Shown one piece after another: positions 10,866-24,822 of a DNA stretch of 64,000 nucleotides. Origin of the DNA: Alphaproteobacteria bacterium (lineage in GTDB: Bacteria; Pseudomonadota; Alphaproteobacteria; Sphingomonadales; Sphingomonadaceae); the NCBI GenBank assembly GCA_003241875.1, contig QBLU01000005.1:34392-98391 (forward strand), written 5' to 3'. The number at the start of each line of letters is the position of its first letter. Within the stretch, counting starts at the first letter, position 1. The notes below the pieces were generated by a model. It was not told where the DNA came from. It made no database searches and worked only from the letters and a program-made list of their open reading frames with translations. The position numbers and the translations under genes were made by a program.

Positions 10866-12782
10866 CTAGACGGGGACCGAGATCACCTTGCCGGCGAAGA
10901 CCTGCTGCCAGCTTTCGATCTCGTCGATCACGATGTCGTCGAGCGCGTGGGCGAGGGCGGCGACTTCGCCATAGCGCAGCCGCGCGTCGGCGGTGGTCGC
11001 GAGCGTCGCGACCCTGGCCGCGAGACCTTCGAATTTTGCGGCGGCAACCTCGGAAATGGCCGCGAAGCGCTCGAAATCGCCGAAATAGCGAATGCCGGCA
11101 AAGGCGCCGCCGAGCGCCGGCAGGGCGACACCGAGGAAGGTGAACAGCTTTGCGGCCTTTTCGGCCAGGTGCGGCGCGCCGAGCACCATCAGCAAATAGA
11201 GGGACACCGTCACGACGGCCGCGGTGAACATCCGTTCCGAGGCATGGTCTAGATTGTGGTGGACCCGCGTCAGCCGCACCGCCTTGGCGCGATGATAGCG
11301 CGCCTGCGTGGTGGCGGCGTCACCGATCAGCGCCAGCACGCCGCGCAGATAGGCGACGGTCACCGCCATCGCCGGCAGGCCGCGCGCGCGCAGCAACTGG
11401 CGGGCATGATGTTCGGGCCACAGCGTCTCGCCGCCCTGGGGCCAGCGCGCCGGCGCGCGGACGGCACCCGCCAGCAGCATGATCGGGGCATGGCGCAGAT
11501 ATTCGGCGACACGGCGGGTTTCGAACCAGCGGCCGTGCCAGCGGTGGCGGCGGCCGGTGCCGGTGATGGCGATGATGGTCGCGAGCAAGGCGAACTCGAA
11601 AAGCGCGAACGGCCATTTCCACGCCGGGGCGACCAGCGGCAGATAGGCGACACCGCCGATGATGGCGAATGCCGACAACAGGAAGTTCAACACCATGCCG
11701 CCACGATAGGCATCGGAGAGGAAGGTCGACAGCGCGTCGGCCCAGGCAAAGCGCGGCAGCACATCGGTGGCGATGCCCTCGACAAGCCGGGCGTCGACGC
11801 CGGGCAGCGCATGGGCCGTGGTCAGCAGCGGCGCCGCCGAGCCGCTGGCGATCGTCGCCGGGGCTTCGTAGCGCTGGACGAGCGAGCGCAGCGGGCGCGG
11901 CTCGCCGCCGAACACGGCCTCCACGCGGCGATAGGCGTGGAAGCGGCGCCGGCTGTGCGGGTGCCATTTTTCGGTGTGGAAGCGAATCGCGCGGGCCCGG
12001 GCATCGGCACCGGGCGGCGAGCAGAGCGTCGCCAGCAGCGCCGCCACCTCGGCGCGCGGCACCGGTGGCCCCGGCGCCAGCAGCGCCTCCGGCGAGCGGA
12101 TGATCCGCCAGTCCTCGGGCGCCGATGCGTCGATCCAGAGGACCGGGCCACCCTGTTCGAGCATGGCGGCGATGCTGTGGCGGGTGCCGCCCAGCGGCTG
12201 CGGTGCCGCACCATCCCAGATGGCGACGAGCAGGTCGGACTGTTCGACCATGACGCGGCCGGCCATCGCGGCGCGTTCCGACACCAGCGCGTCAAAATCC
12301 GAAGCCTCGCCGGCCGCATGCGCGAGCAGCGCAGTGGTAACGGTGGCATCCTGCTCGGCGAGCGCAAAGACGTGCGCCCTCGCCGTCATGCCGTCGATCG
12401 CCGCGAGCCGCGCCGCCGCGTCCCGCCCGGCCGGTGCGGCCCCGGCGAGCAGGGCATGCGCGTCGGCGGTGCTTTCGGGATGGGCGTTGATCGCCCGGTT
12501 GAGCGCCGGACCGAACGGCAGCGGCGCCACCAGCTGCCAGCCACGCGCCAGCGCCAGTTCGGCCGCCATCAGGTCGGCACCATGGGCAAGGAGGGCGTGG
12601 AGGCGGATCGTGGTACCATCGGCAGCCGCGGCGGCGACCATGGCGAAGAGCGCTTCTAGGGCTGCTGCGATCGCGTCCTCGTTGGCGCGAAAGGCGGCAT
12701 TGCTGCAGCGATGGCCGGTCACGCCGAGACTGAAGCCCGGCGCCGGCAAGGATGGAAGCGGCCCCCCCGCGGATGACACCAT
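10866..12782 (-). CDS. SLOG-like nucleotide-sensor domain fused to a SLATT-like membrane module
   Basis: 638 residues, no enzyme family recognised. The N-terminal ~220 residues read as a Rossmann-type SLOG domain: 'GVTGHR' (20-25), then 'HGADLMAAELALARGWQLVAP' beginning at 67 (as in DprA/LOG proteins), then 'SDLLVAIWDG' (182-191) and 'GGTRHSIA' (198-205). The C-terminal part has four predicted membrane helices (about 363-385, 391-408, 519-535, 546-564). A soluble stretch with 'HRWHGRWFETRRVAEYLR' (413-430) resembles the SLATT family, whose members are proposed pore-forming effectors controlled by nucleotide-sensing domains. The family assignment is by eye. Convergent with ssb and divergent from the TIR gene, sharing a ~95-base promoter region with it. 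Confidence 0.65.
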   Translation of the reverse strand: MVSSAGGPLPSLPAPGFSLGVTGHRCSNAAFRANEDAIAAALEALFAMVAAAAADGTTIRLHALLAHGADLMAAELALARGWQLVAPLPFGPALNRAINAHPESTADAHALLAGAAPAGRDAAARLAAIDGMTARAHVFALAEQDATVTTALLAHAAGEASDFDALVSERAAMAGRVMVEQSDLLVAIWDGAAPQPLGGTRHSIAAMLEQGGPVLWIDASAPEDWRIIRSPEALLAPGPPVPRAEVAALLATLCSPPGADARARAIRFHTEKWHPHSRRRFHAYRRVEAVFGGEPRPLRSLVQRYEAPATIASGSAAPLLTTAHALPGVDARLVEGIATDVLPRFAWADALSTFLSDAYRGGMVLNFLLSAFAIIGGVAYLPLVAPAWKWPFALFEFALLATIIAITGTGRRHRWHGRWFETRRVAEYLRHAPIMLLAGAVRAPARWPQGGETLWPEHHARQLLRARGLPAMAVTVAYLRGVLALIGDAATTQARYHRAKAVRLTRVHHNLDHASERMFTAAVVTVSLYLLMVLGAPHLAEKAAKLFTFLGVALPALGGAFAGIRYFGDFERFAAISEVAAAKFEGLAARVATLATTADARLRYGEVAALAHALDDIVIDEIESWQQVFAGKVISVPV

Positions 12783-12824
12783 GACAGCATCGTAGCCGCC
12801 GGCATTGGCATGACAAGGGCCATC

Positions 12825-12853
12825 TTGTTGGCGTGGGGGAACCGGCCTAATCT
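12825..12853 (+). promoter_or_regulatory. Candidate sigma70-type promoter for the TIR gene
   Basis: TTGTTG (12825-12830) and TAATCT (12848-12853) are separated by exactly 17 bases, close to the consensus. Transcription would start near 12860, downstream of the first possible ATG (12810) and upstream of the ATG at 12879, which supports the latter start. Not tested; chance matches occur. Confidence 0.45.
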
Positions 12854-12878
12854 TTCGGCAAGGTTACCAAGGGTGGCA

Positions 12879-14822
12879 ATGACGGGCGAGACAGCAGCAA
12901 CGGGCGCGATGTCGGTGTTCGTCAGCTATTCACGCGACGACCGCAAGCGGGCGCTGCCGGTCATCGCGGCGCTGGAAGCCGCCGGCTATCGGGTTTGGTG
13001 GGACGGCCTGCTCGAAGGTGGGGAGCGGTTTTCGCACACCACCGACCAGGCGCTGGAGACGGCCGCGGCGGTGGTGGTGCTGTGGTCGCGGACCAGCATC
13101 GGCTCGCATTGGGTCCATGACGAGGCGACCCGCGGGCGTGACCGCAAGCGGCTGGTGCCACTGAGCCTCGATGGCAGCGAGCCGCCGCTGGGGTTTCGCC
13201 AGTTCCAGGTGATCGACATCAGCGCCAGCCGCATGAAGCCGGGCGACCCGGCGACCGAGGCGATGCTGCGCGCGGTGGCGGCCCTTCACGATATGCCGCC
13301 GGACCGGCCGGTGGCGAAAGCCCGAACCGTCGACCGGCGCCGTCTGATGCTCGGCGGCGGCGCCCTGGTCGCTGCGGCGGGCGTGGCGGTCGCGGTGACG
13401 CGCCCCTGGGCAAAATCGCCATCGGCGGTGGTGCCGCCGGTGCAGGCCGCGAGCATCGCGGTGCTGCCGTTCGCCAACCTCAGCGCCGATGCCGAGCAGA
13501 CCTATTTTTCGGAAGGGCTGGCCGCCGAGGTGCGGTCCGAACTGGCGCGCAACCCGCGGCTGCAGGTGGTGGCACAGGCGTCGTCGAACCGTTTTCGCAC
13601 CCGCGCCGAGGATGCCCGCGCCATGGCGCGACAATTGGGGGTGGCCTATCTCCTCGACGGCAATGTCCGCCGGGCGGGCGACCGGGTTCGCGTTGCCGCC
13701 GAGCTGATCGATGGCCGCACCGGGTTCAGCCGGTGGAGCGAGGGGTTCGAACGCCCGATCGCCGACGTGTTCGCGGTGCAGGACGAGATTGCCGGTGCGG
13801 TCGCCGCGGCGCTGAGCGTCGAATTGGGCGGCAAGGGCGCTGCCGCGACCGCCGCCCGTCCGATCGGCGGCACCGGCAATGTCGCGGCGTTCGATGCATA
13901 TCTGCGGGGACGCGAGCTGCTGGCGCTGGGCACCGACGAGGCCTCCGACCGCGCGGCGCTGGCGCGTTTCGACGAGGCGCTGCGGCTCGACCCCGGCTAT
14001 GGCGCGGCCCATGCGGCGCGGTCGCGGACGCTGGCGGTGATCGGTAATCAGCACGCGAGCGGCGCCGCGCGACCGGCGGTCTATGCCGAAGCGATCGCCG
14101 CGGCGCAGCGCGCTGTCGAACTGGCGCCGCAGCTCGCCGACGGCTGGTCGGCGCTGGGCTTTGCGCTGTTCAACGGCAAGCTCGATGCGGCGGCGGCGCG
14201 GCCGGCGTTCGAGCGTTCGGCGGCGCTCGGCCCGGGCGACGCCGATGTGCTCAGCCGCTTTGCGCTGTTCAGCGCGCGCACCGGGCGGTTCGAGGCGGCG
14301 CGGGCGGCGATCGCCCGGGCGACGACGCTCGACCCGCTCAACGCCCGTGCCTTTCGACTGGCCGGCGAGGTCGAGTATGTGGCGCGCAACTATGCCGGGG
14401 CCGTGCCGCTGATCGAAAAGGCCCTGGCGCTCAACCCCAAGATGGGTGTCGCCCATGCGGCAATCGGCTTTGCGCTGCTGGCCCAGAACCGCCTCAAGGA
14501 GGCTGAAGCCGCCTTCCGGACCGAGCCGAACAGCCTGTTCGGTCTGACCGGGCTCGCGATCGCCCAGCTCCGGCTGGGCGACCGCGCCGCCGCGGAACGG
14601 GCGTTTGCGTCGCTGGTCAGCGAGCATGGCGATGTTGCGCTCTACCAGCAGGCCCAGGTGCTGGCGCAGTGGAACCAGCCCGAGCGCGCCATGGCCACGC
14701 TGGCCCGCGCGCGGCAATTGGGCGATGCCGGGCTGGTGTATCTGCGCAACGACCCGCTGCTCGATCCGGTCCGGGCAGCGCCGGGCTTTTCCGAATTGCT
14801 AAAGGGACTGGGTTTTGTTTAA
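12879..14822 (+). CDS. TIR domain, membrane helix, FlgO/TolB-N-like domain and TPR protein
   Basis: 647 residues from the chosen ATG (an in-frame ATG at 12810 lies before the candidate promoter; ATG 12909 is also possible). A TIR domain (about 11-125) begins 'MSVFVSYSRDD' and contains 'SHWVHDEA', whose Trp and Glu (Glu82) align with the catalytic 'DWVHKE' of the SARM1 NADase, so it may cleave NAD+. One membrane helix follows (about 156-175). Next is a region 'SIAVLPFANLSADAEQTYF' (from ~192) typical of proteins that pair a sensor with a FlgO/TolB-N-like domain, and then several TPR repeats to the end. Orientation would put TIR in the cytoplasm and the TPR part in the periplasm. It sits divergent from the SLOG-SLATT-like gene and 27 bases upstream of a lipoprotein gene. 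Confidence 0.85.
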   Translation: MTGETAATGAMSVFVSYSRDDRKRALPVIAALEAAGYRVWWDGLLEGGERFSHTTDQALETAAAVVVLWSRTSIGSHWVHDEATRGRDRKRLVPLSLDGSEPPLGFRQFQVIDISASRMKPGDPATEAMLRAVAALHDMPPDRPVAKARTVDRRRLMLGGGALVAAAGVAVAVTRPWAKSPSAVVPPVQAASIAVLPFANLSADAEQTYFSEGLAAEVRSELARNPRLQVVAQASSNRFRTRAEDARAMARQLGVAYLLDGNVRRAGDRVRVAAELIDGRTGFSRWSEGFERPIADVFAVQDEIAGAVAAALSVELGGKGAAATAARPIGGTGNVAAFDAYLRGRELLALGTDEASDRAALARFDEALRLDPGYGAAHAARSRTLAVIGNQHASGAARPAVYAEAIAAAQRAVELAPQLADGWSALGFALFNGKLDAAAARPAFERSAALGPGDADVLSRFALFSARTGRFEAARAAIARATTLDPLNARAFRLAGEVEYVARNYAGAVPLIEKALALNPKMGVAHAAIGFALLAQNRLKEAEAAFRTEPNSLFGLTGLAIAQLRLGDRAAAERAFASLVSEHGDVALYQQAQVLAQWNQPERAMATLARARQLGDAGLVYLRNDPLLDPVRAAPGFSELLKGLGFV

Positions 14823-14849
14823 CCTGTGCATTCATCTCGGGGAACGAAC

Positions 14850-15110
14850 ATGCGCATCATGATCCTGACGGTATTGGGCGCGGCCTTGCTGCTGACGGCC
14901 TGCGGCAAGGCGAAGGAAGCCCCTGCAACCGAATCCGCGCCGGCGATGACAAGCGATGCCATGGTCGGCGGCGATGAAGCCCGCAGCCAGGCCAACGACG
15001 ACCGGACCGACGCGAACGACGACCGCACCGGGGCAAATGATGACCGGACCGGCGCAAACGACGATCGCACCGGCGCGAACGACGACCGGACCGGGCCCGA
15101 CGACAACTAG
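14850..15110 (+). CDS. Small lipoprotein with DDRTGAN heptad tandem repeats
   Basis: 86 residues from the ATG at 14850, chosen because GGGGAA lies just upstream and because the product then begins with a lipoprotein signal peptide ending in 'LLLTAC' (Cys18). After a short Ala/Glu linker the protein is five copies of a seven-residue unit (DDRTGAN, first copy DDRTDAN) ending 'GPDDN'. It is highly acidic and surely disordered. No family recognised. It lies 27 bases after the TIR-TPR gene and is probably cotranscribed with it. The repeat number may vary between strains. Confidence 0.65.
   Translation: MRIMILTVLGAALLLTACGKAKEAPATESAPAMTSDAMVGGDEARSQANDDRTDANDDRTGANDDRTGANDDRTGANDDRTGPDDN
14997..15101 (+). 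repeat. Five 21-bp tandem repeats inside the lipoprotein gene
   Basis: The unit is close to GACGACCGGACCGGCGCAAAC, 21 bases long and in frame, repeated five times with scattered third-position changes (for example GATGACCGG, GACGATCGC). Silent differences between copies show that the peptide repeat is under selection or that the duplication is not very recent. Confidence 0.85.
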
Positions 15111-15126
15111 AGTCGATTGCCGTCAT

Positions 15127-15165
15127 GTTGAACCACAAGGACCGCTCAGCCTGAGCGGATCAACT
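15127..15165. repeat. REP-like palindrome, family 2, short copy
   Basis: CCGCTCAG C CTGAGCGG (15142-15158) is an 8-bp palindrome, flanked by GTTGA on the left and TCAAC on the right. The word TTGATCCGCTCAGGCTGAGC, read on the minus strand, is also found in the longer element at 40368-40443. It lies between the convergent lipoprotein and trypsin-like genes and may act as a terminator for both. Confidence 0.65.
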
Positions 15166-15180
15166 TGAATGCAACCGACT

Positions 15181-16194
15181 CTAGGGCGAGCAGGCCAGCG
15201 CCGGGCGCGGCGCGCGCGGGTCGAGGCGGCAGCGGGCGACGACGGCTCCGGTCGATTGCGCCATGGCCGTATCGATCCAGGCGGCATAGCTGTCGACGCG
15301 CGTGTAGAGGGCGGGAACACCCTTGAGGCCGCAGCCGGTGCCGGTGCTGACCAGGCCGACGAGAAACTGCTGGCGCGTCAGGGGGCCGCCGCTGTCACCC
15401 TGGCAGGCGTCCTGGCCGGTCGCGTCGCCGGCGATGCACATGACGCCGTCCCACAGCGTGCGCCGATAGGTCTTCACGGCTCGGCAGCGGGCCGGGTCGA
15501 CGAGCTGCTGCTGCGCCTCGAGCAGCAATGGTGAACCGCGCATGGCCTTGCCGTCGACGTCCCGCAGCGCGCCGGCCTCGCGTTCGCCGGTGGCGCCCCA
15601 ACCGGTCACCTTCATCTGGGCGCCGACGCCGTGCGGTCCGCGGGTGGCCGGCCACAGGCGCACCGGCCGGGCGAATGCCGCCACCGCCGGATCGGTGCGG
15701 GCGTCGGGGACGAGCCTGATCAGCGCGATGTCGTGGCGCTTGTCACCCATGCGCCGGTAGTCGGCGTGGACGATGACGCGATCGACCGCCATTTCGGTGG
15801 CGCTGGGGAGATAGACGTTGCCCAGGCGCACCCGGCGCGACCCGAACGGCTTCAGCTGTTCCTTCTTGTCGACAAAGCAGTGCGCCGCCGTCAACGCCCA
15901 GCCGGGGGCGATGAGCACGCCGCCACAGACATGGTCGCGCTCCCAGGGCTGCATCTCGGCATAGAATCGCTTGGCGGGGTCATTCGGCGCCATCGCCCGG
16001 TCAGCGGCTAGCTTGTCGGCGGAAATCGGGATGGTGCTGTAGATCTGGATCTGCCACGGCGCGCTGTCGGGGGCAGCGGCGGTGCCCCGGACGATGCGGC
16101 CGGTCTCGTCTTCCACCGGGGTCGGTTCGGCGACGGGTTCCGGGGCCGGCTGGGCGGCCGCCAGCCAGGCCAGCGCCAGGATCAACGCCTTCAT
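15181..16194 (-). CDS. Exported trypsin-like serine protease
   Basis: 337 residues with an N-terminal signal peptide (1 to about 15). A chymotrypsin fold with complete triad follows: His105 in 'LTAAHC', Asp155 in 'RHDIALIRL', Ser268 in 'GDSGGP'. The residue six before the serine is Asp262, the S1-pocket aspartate of trypsin-type enzymes, so cleavage after Arg/Lys is expected. 'RIVRGTAAAP' at 33-42 resembles a zymogen activation site. Its ATG overlaps the stop of the preceding reading frame by four bases (16191-16194), placing it as the last gene of an operon with two caspase-like genes. The product should act in the periplasm or outside the cell. Confidence 0.9.
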   Translation of the reverse strand: MKALILALAWLAAAQPAPEPVAEPTPVEDETGRIVRGTAAAPDSAPWQIQIYSTIPISADKLAADRAMAPNDPAKRFYAEMQPWERDHVCGGVLIAPGWALTAAHCFVDKKEQLKPFGSRRVRLGNVYLPSATEMAVDRVIVHADYRRMGDKRHDIALIRLVPDARTDPAVAAFARPVRLWPATRGPHGVGAQMKVTGWGATGEREAGALRDVDGKAMRGSPLLLEAQQQLVDPARCRAVKTYRRTLWDGVMCIAGDATGQDACQGDSGGPLTRQQFLVGLVSTGTGCGLKGVPALYTRVDSYAAWIDTAMAQSTGAVVARCRLDPRAPRPALACSP

Positions 16195-16715
16195 TCGATG
16201 ACCCTTGTGATGGCGACCGCTGCCGACCAGTTGCCGACGTTCGGCAACGCCCCCGACCGCCGCGTGTCGGCGCCGAGGCAAAAGGCGCGGGCGACGGCGC
16301 TGAGGCAGGCCTGGAGGTCGACGACATCGGTCGCGGTCTGTTCGAGCGCCGCTGCGTTGAGCGGCACGTCGCTGGCCAGCGCGACGAAGCGGAGCTCGCC
16401 GAGGTCGGCGGGGATGATGTCCTGCCCCTCGGGCGGTCGCAGCGGCTGGCCCGGTGCCAGCGCCGGATCGACGGCGCCGAATGCCGGCAGCACCAGGGCG
16501 ACCTCGTACTTTGCATCGACCGCGAGCACATAGGCGAAGCGCGGCCCGGCGGCTTCGTTGACCACCGAAACCATGGCGGGCGCGTTGAGCCGCAGGGTGC
16601 GGCCGGCGGGCGGCGGCGGCGGGCACCAGGCCGGGTTGAAATCGGCCGGGTCGACATTCTGGACGCAGAGGCTGAGCCCCGGCTGCGGCTTTACCGTCGT
16701 CAGCCAGGCCTCCAC
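16191..16715 (-). CDS. DUF4384-like C-terminal part of the caspase protein, displaced by a frameshift
   Basis: 174 residues from a GTG, but the same frame stays open and sensible further upstream, reading '..PATPAFGVRLAAALEKIARVEAW' inside the 3' end of the caspase gene. The later part ('NAPAMVSVVNEA', 'FAYVLAVDAKYEVALVLP', 'ELRFVALASDVPL') resembles DUF4384, a domain commonly attached to bacterial caspase-like proteins. I take it as the true C-terminus of the preceding gene. The break is a one-base shift near 16762-16785, in the run GGGTGGGGCGG. Its stop overlaps the trypsin start, as expected for the end of an intact operon gene. Confidence 0.6.
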   Translation of the reverse strand: MEAWLTTVKPQPGLSLCVQNVDPADFNPAWCPPPPPAGRTLRLNAPAMVSVVNEAAGPRFAYVLAVDAKYEVALVLPAFGAVDPALAPGQPLRPPEGQDIIPADLGELRFVALASDVPLNAAALEQTATDVVDLQACLSAVARAFCLGADTRRSGALPNVGNWSAAVAITRVIE

Positions 16716-18130
16716 CCGCGCGATCTTTTCGAGCGCGGCGGCAAGGCGGACGCCGAATGCGGGCGTGGCGGGTGGGGCGGCAGCGTCGCCAGCACGATGC
16801 CGCCGCGGCCGCGCAGCGCCATGCCGGCGCCGGACGGCACCAGCTGGAACGCGCCGCGGGCGTCGACAGCGACGAAGCCGAGCTGCTGGATCACGGCGAG
16901 CGCCGCCGCATCGTCTACCCCGACCCGCAGCACCGTCTTGCCGAAATCATGACGGACTTCGCGCGCCACCAGCCGGCCGGGGAGATCGGCCGGCACCGGG
17001 CCGATGGCCGCCAGCGTCGCCACGCCGGGGGCAATCGCGGCAACGGTCGCCTCCAGCAGCGGCGCGTCGCCCCCGGCGCGAAGCGCGTCGGTCGTGGCGC
17101 GAAGCGCGTCGGTGGTGGCCGCATACAGCGCAAAGCGCGAGCCCCTGGTCACCCCGACAAGCGCACCCCCGCCGAGCAGCAGGCGGCCGCCATCGCTGAC
17201 GACGGCGAAGGTCGGCACCCTGATTTCGGGGCCGTCGAGGCTGGCGCGCAAGGCGCCTTCGGCGTGCGGCACCTGGCGGCCCGTGGTCCTGGCCGTCACG
17301 TCGCGGACGACGCGGGCGGCGATGTCGGCAAAGCTGGCGCGCGGCGCGGCGACGAGCGCGGCGGCCAGCGCGGTGGTGAACACCCCGGCGCGGTTGCCGA
17401 CGCTGCCGACTTCCTTGGCATCCTGGCCGTCGCCGGCGGCGCCGAGATGGACGCGATAGGCGCCATAGCTGCCATATTGCGCCGGCGCGGCCTGGGGCCG
17501 GAGCCCGGTGACACGAAGGTCGGGCGCGGTCCGGCTGGCGGCATTGCCGTCGCGGCTGGCGGTGCCCGAATTGCAGCTGTCGAACAGCGTGACGACGCGG
17601 ATGCCGGCCCCCGTCGCGCGGTCGATGATGGCGCGCACTTCGTTGTCGAGGATGTCGGCGCCGGCCTGGGCGCCGGGCCGGCGCGCGTCGCTCGCCATCA
17701 GGGTCGAATTGTAGCGGCTGGCCTGGTCGAGCGCGCGATCGTCGATGAAGCGCGAGCCGTGGCCGGCGAAATAGAGCAGCAGCGTGTCGCCGGGGGCGCT
17801 CGCCGCGATGGCGGCCCGCCACGCCGCGATGATGTTCGCCTTGGTGGCGCACTCGTTGGTGAGAGTCTGCGACACGGCACTGGCCGAGCTGCATTCCCCG
17901 GATTCCGGCTGATCGAGCGCGAGGCCGTAGGCGCGGGTGAGCGCGGCCTTCAGGCGCAGCGTGTCGCCGACCGCGCCCGACAGGTCGTCGAATCCGGCAT
18001 CGGGGACGTGCGCGCGGGAGAACTGGTAGCGATCGATGCCGACGAACACGGCGCGGATTTCGGCAGCGGCGGGCACGGCCGTCAGGCCCATGATGACGGC
18101 GGCGAACCGCGACAGCACCGAACGCATCAT
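16700..18130 (-). CDS. Exported caspase-like (C14) protease, 3' end frameshifted
   Basis: 476 residues as read, with signal peptide (1 to about 23). A caspase-hemoglobinase fold follows: 'RAVFVGIDRYQ' (26-36), the catalytic His124 in 'LLLYFAGHGSRF' and Cys186 in 'VVTLFDSCNSG', both intact. The C-terminal ~20 residues (Pro/Arg/Ser-rich) look like out-of-frame sequence; the proper continuation is the DUF4384-like frame at 16191-16715. The ATG overlaps the stop of the upstream caspase gene (18127-18130). The substrate is unknown; C14 family members in bacteria are implicated in regulated cell death or in processing of partner proteins. Export predicts periplasmic action. Confidence 0.8.
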   Translation of the reverse strand: MMRSVLSRFAAVIMGLTAVPAAAEIRAVFVGIDRYQFSRAHVPDAGFDDLSGAVGDTLRLKAALTRAYGLALDQPESGECSSASAVSQTLTNECATKANIIAAWRAAIAASAPGDTLLLYFAGHGSRFIDDRALDQASRYNSTLMASDARRPGAQAGADILDNEVRAIIDRATGAGIRVVTLFDSCNSGTASRDGNAASRTAPDLRVTGLRPQAAPAQYGSYGAYRVHLGAAGDGQDAKEVGSVGNRAGVFTTALAAALVAAPRASFADIAARVVRDVTARTTGRQVPHAEGALRASLDGPEIRVPTFAVVSDGGRLLLGGGALVGVTRGSRFALYAATTDALRATTDALRAGGDAPLLEATVAAIAPGVATLAAIGPVPADLPGRLVAREVRHDFGKTVLRVGVDDAAALAVIQQLGFVAVDARGAFQLVPSGAGMALRGRGGIVLATLPPHPPRPHSASALPPRSKRSRGWRPG

Positions 18131-21100
18131 GGGCGACCCCTGAGCGTGACCGCCGACGGCGCGGTGTTGAAATCGAACAGGCTAGGTTCCTGCACCCGGG
18201 GCGCGGCGGTCGGCGCCCGCATCACCAGCCGGACCCCGCGCGCCGCCATCGGGCCGCCGCCGCGCCGCGCTTCCTCGTTGAGCGATGGCAGCCGGGCGAC
18301 GGCATAGCGCAGCCATTCATCGAGCAGCACCTTGCCGTCGCGATTGGTGTCGGCCGGGCCGCCCGCCGGCGTCAGGCCTTCGCCGAGCGCGGCGGTCAGC
18401 AGGCCCTGGCGCAGGCTGGCGCTTTCCAGCGCGACATCGTCGGCCTGGGTGGCGGCGAGGATGCGCAGGCCCTTGTCGAAGGCCAGCTGCCCAAGGCCCG
18501 GATCGCCCATCGGGCCGGGCTTGAAATCGGGGGTCTGCACGCTGGCGCCCGAATGGCAGGCATCGATGACAAAAGCGATGTCGGCGGCGGCGATGGCGCG
18601 CAGCCAGGTTGTGAGATCGGCGGCGGTGATCGCGGTCGCGGCATCGGGTGCGGCCGCGGCCGCCGGCCAGCGCGCGTCGGAGGCGAGAAGCGCGAAGTTG
18701 CCGGCGGCATCGGCAAAGCCGTGCCCCGAGAAACTGAGGATGACGATGTCGTCGGGCGTCGAACTGTCGAGCGCGTCGGCGTCGTGGCCGGCGGCGGCGA
18801 GCCGGGCCCGCCGCGGGGCAGCGGGCAGGCCGGCGAGGATGCCGAGCGCCGCCTCGATGTCGTCGCGGGAGACCCGGATCGCCCGGCCATCGGCAAGGCG
18901 GCGGGTGGTCAGGCTGACGCGCCGCATCTCGTGGCCGGGGATGACAGCGAGGCGGTCGGCGATGACGCCGGCGTCGGAGACGGCGAAATTGAGCGCCAGC
19001 CGGCTTTCGGCATAATCATCGACGCCGATGGTGACGACGAAGGCGCGCCGGGGCCGCGGCGGGCCGGGCGGCGGCGTCCAGGTCAGCCGGGCGGTATCGC
19101 TTTTGACGCGGTCGCTGTTGAAGGAATAGGCCGAGAATTCGAGCCGCCGGCCATCGGTGGGGACCTGCACGCGTTGTTCCCAGCGGCGGACGCCGTCCGC
19201 GTCGGCAGCGTCCGAAGCGTTGGCCTGGCGCCATTGCGCAAGGGTCTGGCCGCGCGGCTCGAGCGGGATTTCGGGTTGCTGGGCGACCTGCCGGTTGTTG
19301 ATGAAGAGCTTGTAGCCATAGACGCCGGAGCGGGTGATGCCGTTTGCCGCGGCCGGATTGCTGGTCTCGGCGGCTTCGATGCTGACGATGGCCGTGCCCG
19401 GGTCGGCGGCCTTGACCCCGGTGATGCGGACGCGCGGCAGCACGCGGTTGAGGCCCGACATCGGCGGCAGCGGCCGCATCGCCGCACGGCAGTTGCCGGC
19501 CATGGTGCAGTCGGTCAGTTTCTGGATCAGCCGCGGCTCGAAATAGTCGCGCATGAAGCTTTGCGGCGCGAGCGAACACCAGGGTTCGTCGGCCATGAAC
19601 CAGCGGAACTGCGCCGCGTCCGGGCCGAGGTTGGTGTCGTAGCGGCCGTCGGCGGCGACCGACAGGAAGCGGCGATTGCCGAAGAAACTGGTCGTCATCA
19701 ACAGGCGCCAGTTGCGGGTGTCCCACAGCTTCAGTTCGCCGAGCAGGCCGGCCGCCCAGAACAGCGGCTTGCCGGGCACGAAGCCGCCGGCCATGACATT
19801 GCTCATCGCCAGCGGCGGCAGGGCGGCGCCATCCGCAACGCCGGCGCGCTTGATCGATTCCTCGAGGCCGCCGCCGACCAGCAGGGTCCGGGCGTCGCTG
19901 ACCAGCATCGACGGCACGAACGCCTTGATCGCCGTCGTCGTCGGTGACCCCGGCTCGGGGCTGTCGACCGGCCAGGCCAGCACTTCGCCGTTGCCGGCGA
20001 TGTAGAGCGTCTGCCCGTCGGCCGAAAACGCCAGCCGCGTCATCTGCGTGCCCGTCGGAAGCGTCAGGCCCGGCCCGGTTTCGCCGTCGGCCAGCGCCAT
20101 GATCGCGATCTCCACCGACGTGTCGGGCAGCAGCAATGCCACGGCGATGCGATCGCCGCGCGGCGAGGCGGCAAGCAGCGTCACCCGGGTGCTCTTGGCC
20201 AGCTCGACCGGCAGCGGCTGCCAGCGCGCCGTCGTGGGGTCGAAGCGCTGCAGCCCGAAATCGGTGCCGGCCTTGCGGCGGCAATTGGCCAGGCCGGCGC
20301 CGACCAGGCCGCCGTCAGGCAGCGCGCGCACCAGGCAGCGGCCGGGGATCCGCCGCGCCACCGTCGCGGACGCGGCGTCGACGACGAGGATCGGCAGCAG
20401 TTCGCCCACGCCCGTATCGGGATCGGCCGGATCGTCGTCGCTCGTGTCCATCGCGATGACGTGGCCGGCATCGAGCCAGAACAGATCGTCATAGTCGCCG
20501 GGCAGCAGCGCGGCGGCCCCGAACTGCCCGGTCAGCAGGTCGAAGAACGCCAGCGGCGTTTCCAGCTGCCCGCGCGCATTGGGCTCCGCCGTGGCCTCGA
20601 TCATGGCCAGCCGCCGGCCATCGGGCGACAGGCCGGCATCATCCAGCCCGATGGAGCGTTCGTCGGACGCCACCGGCCGCGTGCGACCATCGGCACCGAT
20701 GACGGCAAACGCCGTGCCGCCGCGGACCAGGCGCGAACGCCCGTCGGGCGAGGCCGGCAGCTTCGGCAGCAGCGCCGCCGCTTGCGCCGCGGTCATGCCG
20801 GTACCGCTGCGATAGACGGCCTCCAGCGCCTCCAGCCACGGGAGCATGCGGTCCGCCGCCGGGGTCGGCGGCACGGGCGCCGCCGGCACGGTCGTGACCT
20901 GGCGGCGTTGCAGGTCGACGACATAGGCGCGGCCCGTCATCATCTGCGGGTCGGCGGGATCGAGCACCAGCGCCTCCAGCCGCGCCTTGTCCCCGGCGAC
21001 GGTGATGGCCTGGACCTGCATGAATTCGAGCGTTGCGCCGGGCGCCGCCGGCAGCCGCAGCCGATCGATGATCACCCGCTCGCCAGCGTCCCAGACCAGG

Positions 21101-21324
21101 AATTCGCGGGCGATGCCCGACGCGGTGACGATGAACCGGCCATCGGGCGTCCAGGCCGCGGCATCGATGCCGGTCGCTGCCATCGTCTGCAGCACGATCT
21201 TGGGCTGCACTGACGGGGCCGGCTGGGATTGCGCAAGGGCGGGCGTTGCCAGGCCGACCCAGAGCAGGGTCGCCGCCATGCCGATCCGAGCTTGCCAGCG
21301 AATGCTTCTGCCAGGCGCCCTCAT
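18127..21324 (-). CDS. Exported beta-propeller protein with C-terminal caspase domain and EF-hand-like loop
   Basis: 1065 residues. Signal peptide (Arg-rich n-region, hydrophobic core about 16-30, ends 'ALAQS'; a shorter start at 21279 is possible). A long WD40-like propeller (about 40-600) is recognisable by recurring 'TPDGRFIVTAS', 'SPDGRRLAM', 'FSADGQTLYIAG', 'AADGRYDTN' blades. A linker region and a caspase-like domain (about 755-1000) follow, starting 'RRAFVVTIGVDDY', with His868 in 'LSFSGHG' and Cys923 in 'VIDACHSG'. Near the end 'DTNRDGKVLLDEW' fits an EF-hand calcium loop. First gene of the caspase/caspase/trypsin operon, joined to the next by a four-base overlap. Confidence 0.85.
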   Translation of the reverse strand: MRAPGRSIRWQARIGMAATLLWVGLATPALAQSQPAPSVQPKIVLQTMAATGIDAAAWTPDGRFIVTASGIAREFLVWDAGERVIIDRLRLPAAPGATLEFMQVQAITVAGDKARLEALVLDPADPQMMTGRAYVVDLQRRQVTTVPAAPVPPTPAADRMLPWLEALEAVYRSGTGMTAAQAAALLPKLPASPDGRSRLVRGGTAFAVIGADGRTRPVASDERSIGLDDAGLSPDGRRLAMIEATAEPNARGQLETPLAFFDLLTGQFGAAALLPGDYDDLFWLDAGHVIAMDTSDDDPADPDTGVGELLPILVVDAASATVARRIPGRCLVRALPDGGLVGAGLANCRRKAGTDFGLQRFDPTTARWQPLPVELAKSTRVTLLAASPRGDRIAVALLLPDTSVEIAIMALADGETGPGLTLPTGTQMTRLAFSADGQTLYIAGNGEVLAWPVDSPEPGSPTTTAIKAFVPSMLVSDARTLLVGGGLEESIKRAGVADGAALPPLAMSNVMAGGFVPGKPLFWAAGLLGELKLWDTRNWRLLMTTSFFGNRRFLSVAADGRYDTNLGPDAAQFRWFMADEPWCSLAPQSFMRDYFEPRLIQKLTDCTMAGNCRAAMRPLPPMSGLNRVLPRVRITGVKAADPGTAIVSIEAAETSNPAAANGITRSGVYGYKLFINNRQVAQQPEIPLEPRGQTLAQWRQANASDAADADGVRRWEQRVQVPTDGRRLEFSAYSFNSDRVKSDTARLTWTPPPGPPRPRRAFVVTIGVDDYAESRLALNFAVSDAGVIADRLAVIPGHEMRRVSLTTRRLADGRAIRVSRDDIEAALGILAGLPAAPRRARLAAAGHDADALDSSTPDDIVILSFSGHGFADAAGNFALLASDARWPAAAAAPDAATAITAADLTTWLRAIAAADIAFVIDACHSGASVQTPDFKPGPMGDPGLGQLAFDKGLRILAATQADDVALESASLRQGLLTAALGEGLTPAGGPADTNRDGKVLLDEWLRYAVARLPSLNEEARRGGGPMAARGVRLVMRAPTAAPRVQEPSLFDFNTAPSAVTLRGRP

Positions 21325-21330
21325 CGGCGA

Positions 21331-21359
21331 AAGTTTGCAGAGAGTTTACGACAAGTCAA
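21331..21359 (-). promoter_or_regulatory. Candidate promoter of the caspase/trypsin operon
   Basis: On the minus strand TTGACT (21359-21354) and AAACTT (21336-21331) are 17 bases apart. The predicted start of transcription falls at or next to the first ATG (21324), so the mRNA would be leaderless or the gene would use the internal ATG at 21279. Seen by eye only. Confidence 0.35.
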
Positions 21360-21433
21360 CGCGGGCGGGGCCGCCGAGGGCTCACCGTCCGAGCAGGCGC
21401 ATCATCGCGCGTTCGGCCGGCGCATTGCTGGCC

Positions 21434-22936
21434 TCAATTCAGGCCGCGCTCGCGTGCCCAGATGATCGCCGCCGCCCGCCGCTTGACGCCGATCTTGGCA
21501 TAGAGCCGCGCGACATGGTTGCGGACAGTGTTCGGCGACAGCGACAGATGGGCGCTGATCGCGGTGTCGTCCAAACCCTGGCAGATCAGGTCGAGGACCT
21601 CGCGCTCGCGTCGGCTGAGGTCGACAACGGGGACGGCGGCGCCGGTTGCCGGCCGTCGCAACGTCGCTAGCTTGTCCATGATCGACCGCCCGAACCAGCT
21701 CGCGTCCTTCATCACCGCTTCGATCGCTTCGACCAGCTCGAGCTCGTTGTGACGCCTTGTCGTCATGTCCTGGTAGAGCCAGACCGTCCGCGCCGCGTCG
21801 CCCTGGCTGATGCGGGACGCCGACAACAGGCATTCGATCGCCGTGCCGTCCTTGCCCAGCACACGGACGTCGCGATTGTGGATGCTGCCGGAGGCTTCGA
21901 TCTCGTCTTCGGCACTGCGGCGGTCGGCGGCATCGTCCCACAATTGCAGGTCGTCGGCATGGCGCCCGACGATGTCCGCGTCGGCATAGCCGGCCAACCG
22001 GCAGAAAGCCTCGTTGACCTCGGCGATGCGGTGATCGTCGCCGAGCGTCACGACCATGCCGACGGGTGCCAGTCGAAACAAGGTGGCGAAGTGCCGCTCG
22101 CTGGCCTCACGCTCACGCTCGGCGCGACGCCGCGGCTCGAGATCGGCAAAGGTGAACAGCAGGCAGCGCTCGTCGGCGACCTCGATCGGCTGTCCGGCCA
22201 ACAGGACCAGTTTCGTGCCGCCGCCGGCAAGCGGCAGCTCGGCCTCCAGCTGGGGGACAGTCTCGCCGGCGGCGATGCGGACGCGGACATCGTCATGGCG
22301 GTCGACTCCGGCAAACATGTCGAGCTCGAACAGGCTTTTGCCGGCCAGCATGGCGTTGCTGTAGCCGCTGAGATCGCTGAAACCCTGGTTGGCGCGAATG
22401 TAGCGCTGGTCGCTGACGCGCACGATCAGCGCCGGCGCCGGATTGGCCTGGAACATCGCTTCGAACCGGCCTTCCGCATCATGACGCGCAGAGACATCGT
22501 TGATGACGATCGCCAGCCAGTCCGGGTCGCCGCCGTCCTCGTCCATGACGACGTCGCGGACCTGGTGCATCCAGCGCGGTTCATCTTCGCCCGCCGGCGC
22601 GACGCCGACGACGAGATCGGGGAAGCTGTCGCCGGCGAGCAGCCGCATCAGGGGATATTCCCGCCGCGCGAGACGCCGGCCGTCGGGGGTGCGCAGCACG
22701 AAGCGCTGGACATAGTCGTCGACGGTGGTGCCGAGGTCTTCGACGCGATCGACACCGTGCATCGCCAGCGCCGCCGGATTGGCGCTGAGGATGACGCCGC
22801 TGGAATCGATGACGATGACGCCGGCGATGAGCGCGTCGAGCAGCTGCTCGACATGGACAAGCGTCGGGCCCGCAGACCGCTGCCGCTCGGTCCGCTGCTC
22901 CGGGGGTCGCGATGTGCGCATGATCGATGAGCGCAT
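21434..22936 (-). CDS. Triple-PAS LuxR-family transcriptional regulator
   Basis: 500 residues from the ATG at 22936 (the frame is open further upstream, but that part does not look like coding sequence). Three PAS domains: about 25-145 ('VIVIDSSGVILSANPAAL'), 155-265 ('NPAPALIVRVSDQRYI') and 280-400 ('PVGMVVTLGDDHRIAEVNEAF', with a PAC-like end). The last ~60 residues are a LuxR helix-turn-helix with 'LSRREREVLDLICQGL' and 'NTVRNHVARLYAKIGV'. There is no kinase or receiver domain, so it is probably a one-component sensor-regulator. It lies 109 bases upstream of the caspase operon on the same strand and divergent from the GlsB-like gene. Confidence 0.88.
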   Translation of the reverse strand: MRSSIMRTSRPPEQRTERQRSAGPTLVHVEQLLDALIAGVIVIDSSGVILSANPAALAMHGVDRVEDLGTTVDDYVQRFVLRTPDGRRLARREYPLMRLLAGDSFPDLVVGVAPAGEDEPRWMHQVRDVVMDEDGGDPDWLAIVINDVSARHDAEGRFEAMFQANPAPALIVRVSDQRYIRANQGFSDLSGYSNAMLAGKSLFELDMFAGVDRHDDVRVRIAAGETVPQLEAELPLAGGGTKLVLLAGQPIEVADERCLLFTFADLEPRRRAEREREASERHFATLFRLAPVGMVVTLGDDHRIAEVNEAFCRLAGYADADIVGRHADDLQLWDDAADRRSAEDEIEASGSIHNRDVRVLGKDGTAIECLLSASRISQGDAARTVWLYQDMTTRRHNELELVEAIEAVMKDASWFGRSIMDKLATLRRPATGAAVPVVDLSRREREVLDLICQGLDDTAISAHLSLSPNTVRNHVARLYAKIGVKRRAAAIIWARERGLN

Positions 22937-23103
22937 ATCGAGCCGCCCGGTTCCCTCGGTGAATGACCCGTGGGTACCAACGCCGTGGGTAGCTGCGCAC
23001 CAATCTCGGATCCCGACGAAACCTGCTGAAATGAACTTATGGCGGCAGCCAGCGGTTTTACAGGCTCTCCCGTCGCGGCGGGTCAAACAGGAAGGATTTT
23101 CCA

Positions 23104-23373
23104 GTGAACATCATCATTCTTCTGCTTGTCGGCGGCATCATCGGCTGGGTGGCCAGCATGATCATGCGGACCGATGCCCAGCAGGGCACCGTGCTCAACG
23201 TGGTCGTCGGCATCGTCGGCGCACTGCTCGCCGGCTTCATCGTGACACCCCTGATCGGCGGTGCGCCGATCACCAGCGGCGGCATCAACCTGCAGTCGAT
23301 CGTGGTGTCGCTGCTCGGCTCGGTCATCCTGCTGGCGATCGTCAACCTGTTCCGTCGCGGGACGGTTCGCTAA
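23104..23373 (+). CDS. GlsB/YeaQ/YmgE family stress-response membrane protein
   Basis: 89 residues, three membrane helices, Gly-rich: 'GGIIGWVASMIMRTDAQQGTV' type start (split here at residues 9-29), then 'NVVVGIVGALLAGFIV' and a final helix. This is the transglycosylase-associated/GlsB family, linked to general stress in other bacteria; molecular function unknown. CAGGAAGG lies 12 bases before the ATG. Divergent from the PAS-LuxR gene. Confidence 0.9.
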   Translation: MNIIILLLVGGIIGWVASMIMRTDAQQGTVLNVVVGIVGALLAGFIVTPLIGGAPITSGGINLQSIVVSLLGSVILLAIVNLFRRGTVR

Positions 23374-23479
23374 CGCCAGTTTCGGCGGCGCTCCATCGCG
23401 AGCGCCGCCGTTCTGTCGAGCCTTGGGGTTCGCCGCTCTGGTCGGAAACAGCGAGAGGATCAGGAGCGTGACGAGCCTG

Positions 23480-23725
23480 ATGGACACACTTCCCCATCCC
23501 GAACCGGGCATATTGCTCGCGGCAGCGCTTGGGCTGACGTTGGTCGCCTTTGCCGGCCTGATCCTGTTCATCGGTCGCCGGCATGCCCGCCGCTCGTCCG
23601 AGCAATCACCGATTACTGTGACGTTCGATCGCGCCCGACCAGCGTCGAAGCTCGGGGCGGCGCGGCCGGAACACCCGCCCGAGGGCGCTTCGACCGAGCC
23701 CGAGAAAATCCGCCAACACTCATAG
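23480..23725 (+). CDS. Small single-helix hypothetical protein
   Basis: 81 residues with one hydrophobic helix (about 9-30, 'ILLAAALGLTLVAFAGLILF'), then 'IGRRHARR' and a polar Pro/Glu-rich tail. A GTG at 23468 in the same frame is an alternative start; AGGAG at 23462-23466 is badly placed for it but 13 bases from the ATG. No family recognised. Possibly cotranscribed with the GlsB-like gene 106 bases upstream. Confidence 0.4.
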   Translation: MDTLPHPEPGILLAAALGLTLVAFAGLILFIGRRHARRSSEQSPITVTFDRARPASKLGAARPEHPPEGASTEPEKIRQHS

Positions 23726-23799
23726 CTGTCCGAACGTCGGGCTTGGGGCCCGGCGCCGGCTTGTGATAGGGTAAGCCCCGTAACAGGGGGCGGTATCCC

Positions 23800-24795
23800 A
23801 TGCGGTTGCGGTGTGTATCGATCCTGCTGGCCGCGACACTGCTGTCGGGCTGCGCCGCCAACCAGCTGCGCATCGAACGCGCCGGCGCCGTCGTCCAGGA
23901 AGGCCAGCCGCTGGTCACCGCATCGAAGGCGCTGATCGCCGACATTGCTGCCACCAGCCGCGACGCCAGCATCGAGCTCGCGCTCGCCGATCCGCTGTGC
24001 GACTGGCCTGAAATCCACATCGCCACCGGCACGCCGGCGGCCTCGCTTTGCGATCCAGCGAGCAGCAGCCACACGACCTTCACCCGCATAAACGCCGGCG
24101 CGTTTGCGCCGACCGTCACGCTGATCGGCGCGCTGTCGGCCTATGTCGCCGCGGTCGATGCCGTCGCGTCCGGGGCGACGACCGACGAGCGCTTCAACCT
24201 CGCCGCCGCCAAGGCGCAGCTCGAATCGGTCGCCGGCGCCGTCGGCGTCAACCCGATCGCCAAGCTGTCGGAGGACCAGCAAAAGGCCCTCGACGGCCTT
24301 GTCGCGCTGATCGACACGCTGTCCCGCGAGGCCGAGCAGGCGCGGCAGCTGCAGGCGATCGAAGCCAACACGCCCGGGCTGCGCGCGGTGACGACGGCGC
24401 TGCGCCGCGACCTCGCCAACTGGGCCAATCTGGCGCTGGTGTCCGAACTCGCCAATCTGCAAAGCGTGCAGACGCTGCGCTGGCAGCGCGACCGCATGCT
24501 GCGCCTGCAGCCCGAGCGGCGCGGCGTGCGACGCGAGCTGCTCGGCGACGACGCCCGGCGCGCGCTGCTGCGCCAGCGGCTGGAAACCGAAAATCGCCTC
24601 GCCGCCGCGCGGGCCTTGCCGGTGACGCTGGCGCAGGCGGTCACCGATTTCGAAACGGCGCACGACAGCTATGTCAACACGCTCCAGAACAAGGCGCTGA
24701 CGCCAGAAAACCGCGCCCGGCTCGCTGAATTGACCCGGGAACGCCTGCGCCAGTCGCTGACCTTGCTGGCGCAAACCGTTGCAGCCTTTGCCTAG
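23800..24795 (+). CDS. Hypothetical lipoprotein with helical C-terminal region
   Basis: 331 residues. Lipoprotein signal 'ILLAATLLSGCAAN' with Cys19. The rest is Ala- and Leu-rich and almost entirely helical by eye, with heptad-like stretches around 140-170 and 225-330 ('RQRLETENRLAAARAL'). No enzyme motif found. It probably extends from the outer or inner membrane into the periplasm as a coiled coil. Followed 27 bases later by a small gene on the same strand with its own ribosome binding site. Confidence 0.65.
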   Translation: MRLRCVSILLAATLLSGCAANQLRIERAGAVVQEGQPLVTASKALIADIAATSRDASIELALADPLCDWPEIHIATGTPAASLCDPASSSHTTFTRINAGAFAPTVTLIGALSAYVAAVDAVASGATTDERFNLAAAKAQLESVAGAVGVNPIAKLSEDQQKALDGLVALIDTLSREAEQARQLQAIEANTPGLRAVTTALRRDLANWANLALVSELANLQSVQTLRWQRDRMLRLQPERRGVRRELLGDDARRALLRQRLETENRLAAARALPVTLAQAVTDFETAHDSYVNTLQNKALTPENRARLAELTRERLRQSLTLLAQTVAAFA

Positions 24796-24822
24796 TTGAC
24801 GATCTCAGGGGAGAGCCCGACC

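What the first reader, a model, noticed from the sequence alone, without database searches (positions are those of the whole stretch)
15181..21324. Operon of two exported caspase-like proteases and an exported trypsin with four-base overlaps
The three genes overlap by exactly four bases at each junction, all begin with signal peptides, and all catalytic residues are present (His868/Cys923, His124/Cys186, His105/Asp155/Ser268). The trypsin has a zymogen-like 'RIVRG' site and an S1 Asp. Caspase-like enzymes usually cut after Arg/Lys in bacteria, as the trypsin would, so a periplasmic activation cascade is conceivable. Most described bacterial caspase defence modules act in the cytoplasm.
Basis: partly seen in the sequence, partly recalled or inferred. 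Interest (0 to 1): 0.7.

Follow-up and report, generated by a model that had tools for sequence, protein, structure and literature searches.

The report
TIR module with protease-matched bait
In some sphingomonad bacteria two caspase-like proteases and a trypsin, all apparently exported, sit beside an immune-type TIR receptor and a tiny lipoprotein whose repeated tail looks made for that trypsin to cut, which suggests signalling triggered by proteolysis outside the cytoplasm.

Summary
The protease genes and catalytic residues are real, with one flaw: the second caspase gene (B) is frameshifted in this assembly, so its four-base overlap with the trypsin holds only for its C-terminal frame. In relatives B is intact and both overlaps recur (22 of 23, 20 of 21).

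The operon is not alone: a TIR-TolB_N-TPR receptor, a small acidic lipoprotein and a SLOG-fold membrane protein lie beside it. In 149 family genomes, 16 of 17 strong trypsin hits lie within 5 kb of a TIR receptor, SLOG protein or caspase.

The lipoprotein tail carries repeats (here DDRTGAN) whose putative P1 residue follows the trypsin pocket: pocket Asp goes with tail Arg (31 of 34), other pockets less often (6 of 24). The Arg prediction was written down before 26 new pairs were fetched and held (10 of 11 against 3 of 15), but the tree-corrected test is not significant. Beside cytosolic-type caspases the repeat protein lacks a signal peptide (6 of 6).

Best reading: one system in which exported proteases cut a bait read by a TIR receptor. 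Substrate pairing is well supported by comparison; direction, trigger and outcome are inferred. My literature searches showed no description of it.

The parts
18127..21324 (-). A: WD40-like N-terminal part and C-terminal C14 caspase domain (His868/Cys923), signal-peptide-like start
   Evidence: PF00656 19.3 bits, below its 21.4 cut-off; PADLOC caspase 6e-08
16700..18130 (-). B, N-terminal frame: signal-peptide-like start and C14 caspase domain (His124/Cys186); the frame breaks near its end
   Evidence: (PF00656 43.1 bits); model of an intact relative fits metacaspase/MALT1, Z up to 23.7
16191..16790 (-). B, C-terminal part in another frame (upper limit approximate); contiguous with the caspase part in relatives
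   Evidence: DUF4384 at 18.1 bits (cut-off 27) in relative L071
15181..16194 (-). C: S1A trypsin zymogen (R33-IVRG; H105/D155/S268; S1 Asp), signal-peptide-like start
   Evidence: (PF00089 135.8 bits)
14850..15110 (+). Bait lipoprotein: lipobox, acidic linker, tail of DDRTGAN repeats
   Evidence: sequence; family features
14994..15094 (+). Tandem repeat encoding the Arg-containing tail units (period 21, 4.8 copies)
12810..14822 (+). TIR-TM-TolB_N-TPR receptor (an ATG at 12879 is an alternative start)
   Evidence: (TIR_2 76.1 bits; TolB_N 20.8 of 22.4); Glu80 in 12 of 12 rows that cover it; one TM-like segment
10866..12782 (-). SLOG-fold domain plus TM-like segments, divergent from the TIR gene
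   Evidence: model pLDDT 84, YpsA Z 15.4, DprA 12.9

Best explanation
The locus is one signalling system, and the operon is its protease arm. Two exported caspase-like proteases (A, B) and a trypsin zymogen (C) act outside the cytoplasm. The caspases, or the trypsin itself, activate C after Arg33. Active C cuts the repeated DDR|TG-type sites in the tail of the small lipoprotein encoded next to the TIR gene. The cut bait, or the released C-terminal-Arg peptides, is sensed by the outward-facing TolB_N/TPR part of the TIR receptor. The cytosolic TIR domain then makes an NAD-derived messenger that acts on the SLOG-fold membrane protein, and the cell depolarises, arrests or dies. Supported by comparison: the parts belong together; bait tail and trypsin pocket match; the bait is a lipoprotein where the protease looks exported. 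Inferred: every enzymatic step, TIR topology, the order of events, the trigger and the outcome.
For: (1) Linkage: of 17 listed PF00089 hits over 100 bits in 149 family genomes, 16 lie within 5 kb of a TIR receptor (13), SLOG protein (12) or caspase (G024 only by a weak, 64-bit caspase); exception G123. In the genus SLOG and B share a contig within about 8 kb in 10 of 12 genomes having both. Gene order differs among loci. Named A-B-C loci with at least 2.3 kb beyond C: 15 of 17 have TIR or SLOG. (2) Bait: a small acidic lipoprotein begins within 150 bp after the TIR gene in 28 of 35 loci, against 1 of 851 other ORFs. (3) Specificity match, 58 pairs: S1 Asp with tail Arg 31 of 34, other S1 6 of 24 (Fisher 2.5e-7, relatedness ignored). 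Prediction noted before the new sequences were fetched: 10 of 11 against 3 of 15 (p=0.001); without four baits found only by looser reading 6 of 7 against 3 of 15 (p=0.007); counting Arg in the whole mature bait 10 of 11 against 4 of 15 (p=0.002). S1 Phe: 8 of 8 with Gln/His repeats, others 0 of 50 (one clade, seen post hoc). Sister switch: L022 (Asp) DERTGP, L185 (Gly) DEFTGP. A pair not in the 58, L201: Asp with EDTR repeats. (4) Compartment: lipobox on 49 of 51 baits in trypsin loci, 0 of 6 beside cytosolic-type caspases. (5) TIR Glu 12 of 12; SLOG model matches YpsA, DprA, LOG and, weakly, ADP-ribose-bound TRPM2 (Z 8.7).
Against: Tree-corrected: 6 supported independent pairs, 3.7 with and 1.0 against on average, median p 0.375: not significant. 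The Phe group is one clade, so 8 of 8 may be one event. Counter-examples: L067, L072, L178 (S1 Asp, no tail Arg); L037, L024, L025, L172, L185, L194 (S1 not Asp, some Arg). Many tails have one or two Arg sites, not repeats. Baits without a signal peptide beside trypsins: L161, L197. Not every trypsin passes my signal-peptide rule (49 of 55 loci). Repeat proteins also follow TIR genes in loci where I found no trypsin, and several TIR genes have no bait that I could find. The TM-like segment of the TIR protein is weak in several relatives, so topology is unsure. No SLOG match at E 1e-10 in G084 and G118, which have A and B. B is broken in this window. No activity is shown.
Confidence: 0.45

Rival explanations
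1. Same parts, opposite direction: the TIR enzyme senses an attack, its messenger acts on the SLOG protein, and the exported proteases are downstream effectors. The bait is a competitive substrate or decoy that soaks up leaking protease activity.
For: Known TIR systems put the TIR upstream and an effector downstream, one of them a caspase-like protease (type IV Thoeris, passage in PMC12847820). A decoy must also match the protease pocket and compartment, as seen.
Against: A cytosolic messenger cannot directly reach periplasmic proteases; a relay through the membrane would be needed. Where a bait was found it follows the TIR gene, not the protease gene (only that place was scanned systematically).
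Confidence: 0.25
2. The lipoprotein tail is an anchor, inhibitor or maturation helper of the trypsin, held by product-like binding in its pocket, and has no link to TIR signalling.
For: Pocket-tail covariation fits any direct binding. By the strict scan bait goes with trypsin in new TIR loci (22 of 27 against 2 of 15), though re-reading found repeat proteins in at least five of the trypsin-free loci (L162, L163, L164, L165, L168).
Against: In seven genomes bait and trypsin were found apart (six on different contigs of drafts, one 380 kb apart), with the bait still after the TIR gene. Cytosolic repeat proteins follow TIR genes that have a caspase and no trypsin.
Confidence: 0.15
3. Ordinary secreted or housekeeping proteases that happen to lie in a variable region rich in TIR and SLOG genes.
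For: Possibly exported caspases are known: 46 single-domain metacaspases with one N-terminal helix that may be a signal peptide (passage in PMC3501461).
Against: 16 of 17 strong trypsin hits in 149 family genomes sit at such loci, in several gene orders, and bait tails follow the pocket.
Confidence: 0.07
4. In this strain the operon is decaying: the frameshift in B is real and the arm is inactive or works with A and C only. (Compatible with the other readings for the family.)
For: Frame break in B here, not in the eight relatives aligned.
Against: A, C, bait, TIR and SLOG genes are open and keep the residues checked. A draft-assembly error in a C-rich run is as likely.
Confidence: 0.3

Closest known systems
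Thoeris, type IV (TIR plus caspase-like effector) and type I (TIR plus SIR2-SLOG)
   Same: TIR domain with the catalytic-type Glu; a caspase-fold protease or a SLOG-fold protein encoded nearby
   Different: Here the caspases have signal-peptide-like starts, the SLOG-fold protein has TM-like segments and no SIR2 hit, and there are a trypsin and a repeat-tailed bait. Thoeris facts are from passages in PMC12847820; the SLOG part of ThsA is recalled.
Caspase/trypsin conflict systems of Kaur, Burroughs, Iyer and Aravind (EACC1, NucA-trypsin, VMAP, CATRA)
   Same: Caspase and trypsin families in conflict loci; a SLATT membrane partner is mentioned there
   Different: No EACC1 or EAD call here. I read only passages (PMC7159879, PMC8195603). 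'Signal peptide' occurs in neither; PMC7159879 has 'periplasm' twice, in passages I did not see.
Canu and trypsin-nuclease pairs in Hachiman/AVAST
   Same: A dedicated protease paired with its own co-encoded substrate
   Different: There the substrate is a pro-nuclease; here a disordered acidic lipoprotein with repeated sites, and the protease looks exported (PMC12799240, passages)
Toll pathway of insects (recalled)
   Same: Extracellular trypsin-like zymogen cascade, processed ligand, receptor with a cytosolic TIR domain
   Different: No homology of receptor ectodomain or ligand claimed; analogy only
Peptidase families C14 (metacaspase type) and S1A (trypsin)
   Same: Fold, catalytic residues, Asp for basic P1
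   Different: Operon context and co-varying putative substrate

Membership tests
Peptidase S1A trypsin | His/Asp/Ser triad, GDSGGP, N-terminal R|IV activation site | tested here: met
   PF00089 135.8 bits; triad and Arg33 in 20 of 20 rows
Peptidase S1A trypsin | S1 Asp for Arg/Lys preference | tested here: met
   Asp in the window; 18 of 20 rows
Peptidase C14 (metacaspase type) | p20 fold with His-Cys dyad and Asp two residues before Cys | tested here: met
   B 43.1 bits; model of a relative Z up to 23.7; His/Asp/Cys 18 of 18. A is below the Pfam cut-off (19.3 of 21.4) but keeps His/Asp/Cys in 12 of 12
Thoeris | TIR domain with catalytic Glu | tested here: met
   TIR_2 76.1 bits; Glu80 in 12 of 12 rows that cover it
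Thoeris | Cytosolic effector of a known ThsA type beside the TIR gene | tested here: not met
   Caspases have signal-peptide-like starts; no SIR2 or macro hit in the 10 window proteins scanned, 10866-25371; best NCBIfam Thoeris hit 23.9 bits, cut-off 220
Thoeris | TIR product activates the effector; phage protection | not testable with these tools
   needs biochemistry and phage assays
EACC1/CATRA-type caspase systems | EACC1-type caspase with EACC1/EAD adaptor | tested here: not met
   NF047832 44.0 and 37.4 bits, cut-off 140; no hit named EAD or EACC1 among the 10 window proteins
Canu | caspase plus MBL-type pro-nuclease | tested here: not met
   no MBL-fold hit among the 10 window proteins scanned
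SLOG superfamily | YpsA/DprA/LOG-like Rossmann fold | tested here: met
   Z 15.4 YpsA (161 aligned, 2.8 A), 12.9 DprA, 9.7 LOG; Foldseek alone gave no match at E 0.001; no Pfam SLOG call in the window protein
SLATT/DUF4231 | 2TM domain over the curated cut-off | tested here: inconclusive
   DUF4231 16.5 of 24.7; SLATT_1 15.9 of 41

The most novel reading that the evidence does not exclude
A bacterial Toll-like pathway: an extracytoplasmic zymogen cascade (caspases, then trypsin) processes a tandem-repeat pro-ligand lipoprotein, releasing peptides that a TIR receptor recognises; the receptor's NAD-derived messenger then acts on a SLOG-fold, TRPM2-like membrane channel. Trypsin pocket and pro-ligand sites co-evolve, so that lineages use different proteolytic codes (Arg, Gln/His, Phe and others).
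Probability: 0.3. Interest if true: 0.95.

Novelty: categorically new. Interest (0 to 1): 0.85.

Why it matters
Every domain is known, but my searches showed no description of an exported caspase/trypsin arm wired to a TIR receptor through a dedicated bait. If right, bacteria read proteolysis outside the cytoplasm with the enzyme family (TIR) that animals use behind Toll, and orphan exported caspases gain a testable context. The pocket-to-tail match gives concrete peptides and mutants for a direct test, and a way to propose substrates of exported proteases from sequence alone.

Tried and rejected
Closest PDB relatives of C by sequence are animal serine proteases (plasma kallikrein, factor XI); that says S1A only. 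PADLOC gave generic caspase, TIR and LuxR/CARF-type hits. A PDB sequence search with the SLOG-protein profile gave nothing better than E 0.14, so folds were compared. Long helical matches of its C-terminal half (TolC, ABC transporters) were treated as common helix packing.

I tried to use the zymogen Arg as proof that caspases activate the trypsin; after the tree one supported independent pair remains, so it is only compatible. I first thought bait presence meant trypsin presence. The count with rescued baits (26 of 27 against 2 of 15) was biased, because only trypsin loci had been re-read. The strict scan gives 22 of 27 against 2 of 15, and re-reading trypsin-free loci showed repeat proteins there too. 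I dropped that claim.

Class-wide searches of 337 genomes found the TIR receptor in 2 (both in this family) and SLOG-TM in 7, 5 of them outside the family, at strict E-values and with at most three candidates scored per genome, so remote relatives could be missed. The 149-genome profile searches scored at most eight candidates per genome (five for A), so their counts are lower bounds; the PF00089 list was cut off at about 75 bits.

Literature: ten searches of the open PMC library. No title or abstract start listed describes an exported caspase and trypsin beside TIR; no paper held both Sandarakinorhabdus and caspase. Most subscription journals are absent. Seen as passages: PMC7159879, PMC8195603, PMC3501461, PMC12799240, PMC12847820. 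All others were listings.

Rows dropped: L159 and L160 as copies of L082 and L067; L019_5062 (fragment); L182 (partial trypsin, no bait found); named copies of unnamed loci (such as L051, L052). L012, L015, L019 and L156 were not paired because no bait is on the DNA held. L201 was left out of the 58 and looked at last; it agrees. In the 49-of-51 count, L195, L036 and L178 were corrected. The tail was set as the last 40 residues after the new sequences had been seen; the whole-bait count is given beside it.
Full report
1. The observation. A ends with ATGA shared with the start of B. B, however, is split: its caspase frame stops at 16700, while its C-terminal part runs in another frame to 16191 and there shares ATGA with the start of the trypsin. 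In the eight relatives aligned both parts form one ORF of roughly 630-670 aa. The window is a contig of a draft genome (111 contigs), so an assembly or sequencing error is possible. Four-base overlaps are a real feature of the operon: 22 of 23 A/B and 20 of 21 B/C junctions in named relatives, and most junctions read in unnamed relatives (exceptions in L018, L024, L025).

2. The proteases. A: WD40-like N-terminal part, C14 domain below the Pfam cut-off (19.3 of 21.4 bits), dyad kept in 12 of 12. B: C14 43.1 bits; a model of an intact relative (pLDDT 77) fits metacaspase 9 (Z 23.7) and MALT1 (Z 22.8). C: PF00089 135.8 bits. Signal-peptide-like N-termini: window A, B, C; relatives A 11 of 11, B 9 of 10, C 12 of 14. 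This is a hydropathy rule, not a trained predictor.

3. The surroundings. Beside the operon, divergent from each other, are a TIR-TolB_N-TPR gene (12810-14822) and a gene for a SLOG-fold protein with TM-like segments (10866-12782). The model of the latter (pLDDT 84) matches YpsA Z 15.4, DprA 12.9, ShosA 12.2, LOG 9.7 and, weakly, ADP-ribose-bound TRPM2 8.7. In the genus (24 genomes) B is found in 14 (>250 bits), SLOG-TM in 16, both in 12; in 10 of these 12 they share a contig within about 8 kb. In 149 family genomes A is found in 6, each also with B; SLOG-TM is within about 6 kb in 4 of the 6. Named loci with the full A-B-C set are Sphingomonadales (Sandarakinorhabdus, Novosphingobium, Glacieibacterium, MAGs) or unplaced alphaproteobacterial MAGs; distant A relatives occur in Marinobacterium, Amphritea, Aliiruegeria and others.

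4. Trypsin as a mark of the system. PF00089 over 149 family genomes gave 17 listed hits above 100 bits, in 16 genomes; the next listed is 86.7 bits, the HtrA/Do range by my inference. Of the 17, 13 have a TIR receptor within 5 kb, 12 a SLOG protein, and 16 at least one of TIR, SLOG or caspase. Several loci have TIR, SLOG and a longer trypsin but no A/B caspase (L021, L022, L028, L036, L037 among others). Gene order varies among loci, so the linkage is more than inherited order.

5. The bait. Right after the TIR gene lies a small acidic lipoprotein (28 of 35 loci, against 1 of 851 other ORFs). In the window its tail is DDRTGAN repeated (21-base unit, 4.8 copies). Other tails: PDERTG, EDDRTG, GDETRTG, SNDQG, STDQG, TDHGN, or single sites such as DERGNP.

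6. Pocket and tail. From 25 pairs I saw that trypsins without the S1 Asp tend to have baits without Arg. I wrote the prediction down and then fetched new loci. In 26 new pairs: S1 Asp 10 of 11 with tail Arg, other S1 3 of 15 (p=0.001). Four of the Asp baits had been missed by the automatic scan and were found by looser reading; without them 6 of 7 against 3 of 15 (p=0.007). Counting Arg in the whole mature bait: 10 of 11 against 4 of 15 (p=0.002). All 58 pairs: 31 of 34 against 6 of 24 (p=2.5e-7); no permutation of 100,000 reached the agreement of 49 of 58; neither test allows for relatedness. S1 Phe: 8 of 8 have repeated D(Q/H)G-type units, others 0 of 50, but these eight form one clade and the class was defined after seeing them. 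Close pairs differ in step: L022 (Asp) DERTGP and L185 (Gly) DEFTGP; L184 (Asp) GDERGNP and L031 (Gly) GTGHGNP. Against: L037 (Gly) keeps DERGN; L024 (Ser), L194 (Lys) and a few others keep some Arg; L067, L072, L178 (Asp) have no tail Arg. On the trypsin tree there are six supported independent pairs, 3.7 with and 1.0 against on average, p 0.375. The match is strong by count but not proven against shared descent. One pair left out of the 58, L201, agrees.

7. Compartment. In loci with a caspase that starts straight with its catalytic domain (L136, L139, L143, L144, L164, L165; two of them scanned with Pfam, both with a hydrolase-like part) the gene after TIR encodes a small repeat protein without signal peptide, mostly (GNGDR)n-like: 6 of 6. 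L189 has such a caspase but I found no repeat protein. In trypsin loci 49 of 51 baits have a lipobox (46, recounted, plus L195, L178, L036); L161 and L197 do not (Fisher 8e-7). The trypsin itself passes my signal-peptide rule in 49 of 55 such loci.

8. Activation of the trypsin. The residue before the mature N-terminus is Arg in 26 of 26 trypsins with a caspase on the locus and 4 of 13 without. One supported independent contrast remains, so this is compatible with a caspase-to-trypsin step and does not prove it.

9. Mechanism. Best reading: exported proteases, in an order not yet known, cut the bait; the TIR receptor reads the result; the SLOG-fold protein carries out the response. The reverse order (TIR first, proteases last, bait as buffer) is the main rival. 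The support is comparative only: membership of the parts, pocket-tail match, compartment match. Enzyme activity, messenger, trigger and outcome are inferred.

10. Known systems. Thoeris shares TIR and, in type IV, a caspase-like effector (passage in PMC12847820), but the caspases here look exported and no SIR2 or macro effector was found in the ten window proteins scanned. EACC1/CATRA: the caspases score far below the EACC1 model (44.0 and 37.4 of 140). Canu: no nuclease among those ten. I therefore file the proteases in C14 and S1A, the fold of the membrane protein in SLOG, and the arrangement in no system that my searches showed.

Noticed in passing
window 21434-23086 (-): PAS domains (three stretches) and a LuxR-type DNA-binding domain directly upstream of A on the same strand, about 110 bases apart; I did not see it as a conserved neighbour in the listings of relatives.
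   Followed up: partly
window 17062-17119: Short 21-base tandem duplication inside B (TTDALRA repeated); a gap in the eight relatives aligned.
   Followed up: no
L136, L139, L143, L144, L164, L165: A sister arrangement: a TIR receptor near a cytosolic-type caspase (with a DUF7379/hydrolase-like part in L136 and L139, the two scanned), a CHAT protein (L139) or an nSTAND1 NTPase (L144), and a (GNGDR)n-like repeat protein without signal peptide.
   Followed up: partly
L076, L077, L079, L080, L083, L084: Distant A relatives (ORFs of about 1500-1740 aa) in Amphritea, Pontibacterium, Marinobacterium and Aliiruegeria with a weak B-like caspase hit nearby and no trypsin-profile hit.
   Followed up: no
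L038-L041, L044, L045: More distant SLOG-TM relatives in the family without trypsin or A/B caspase on the stretch held; L045 has a TIR receptor.
   Followed up: no
   Followed up: no
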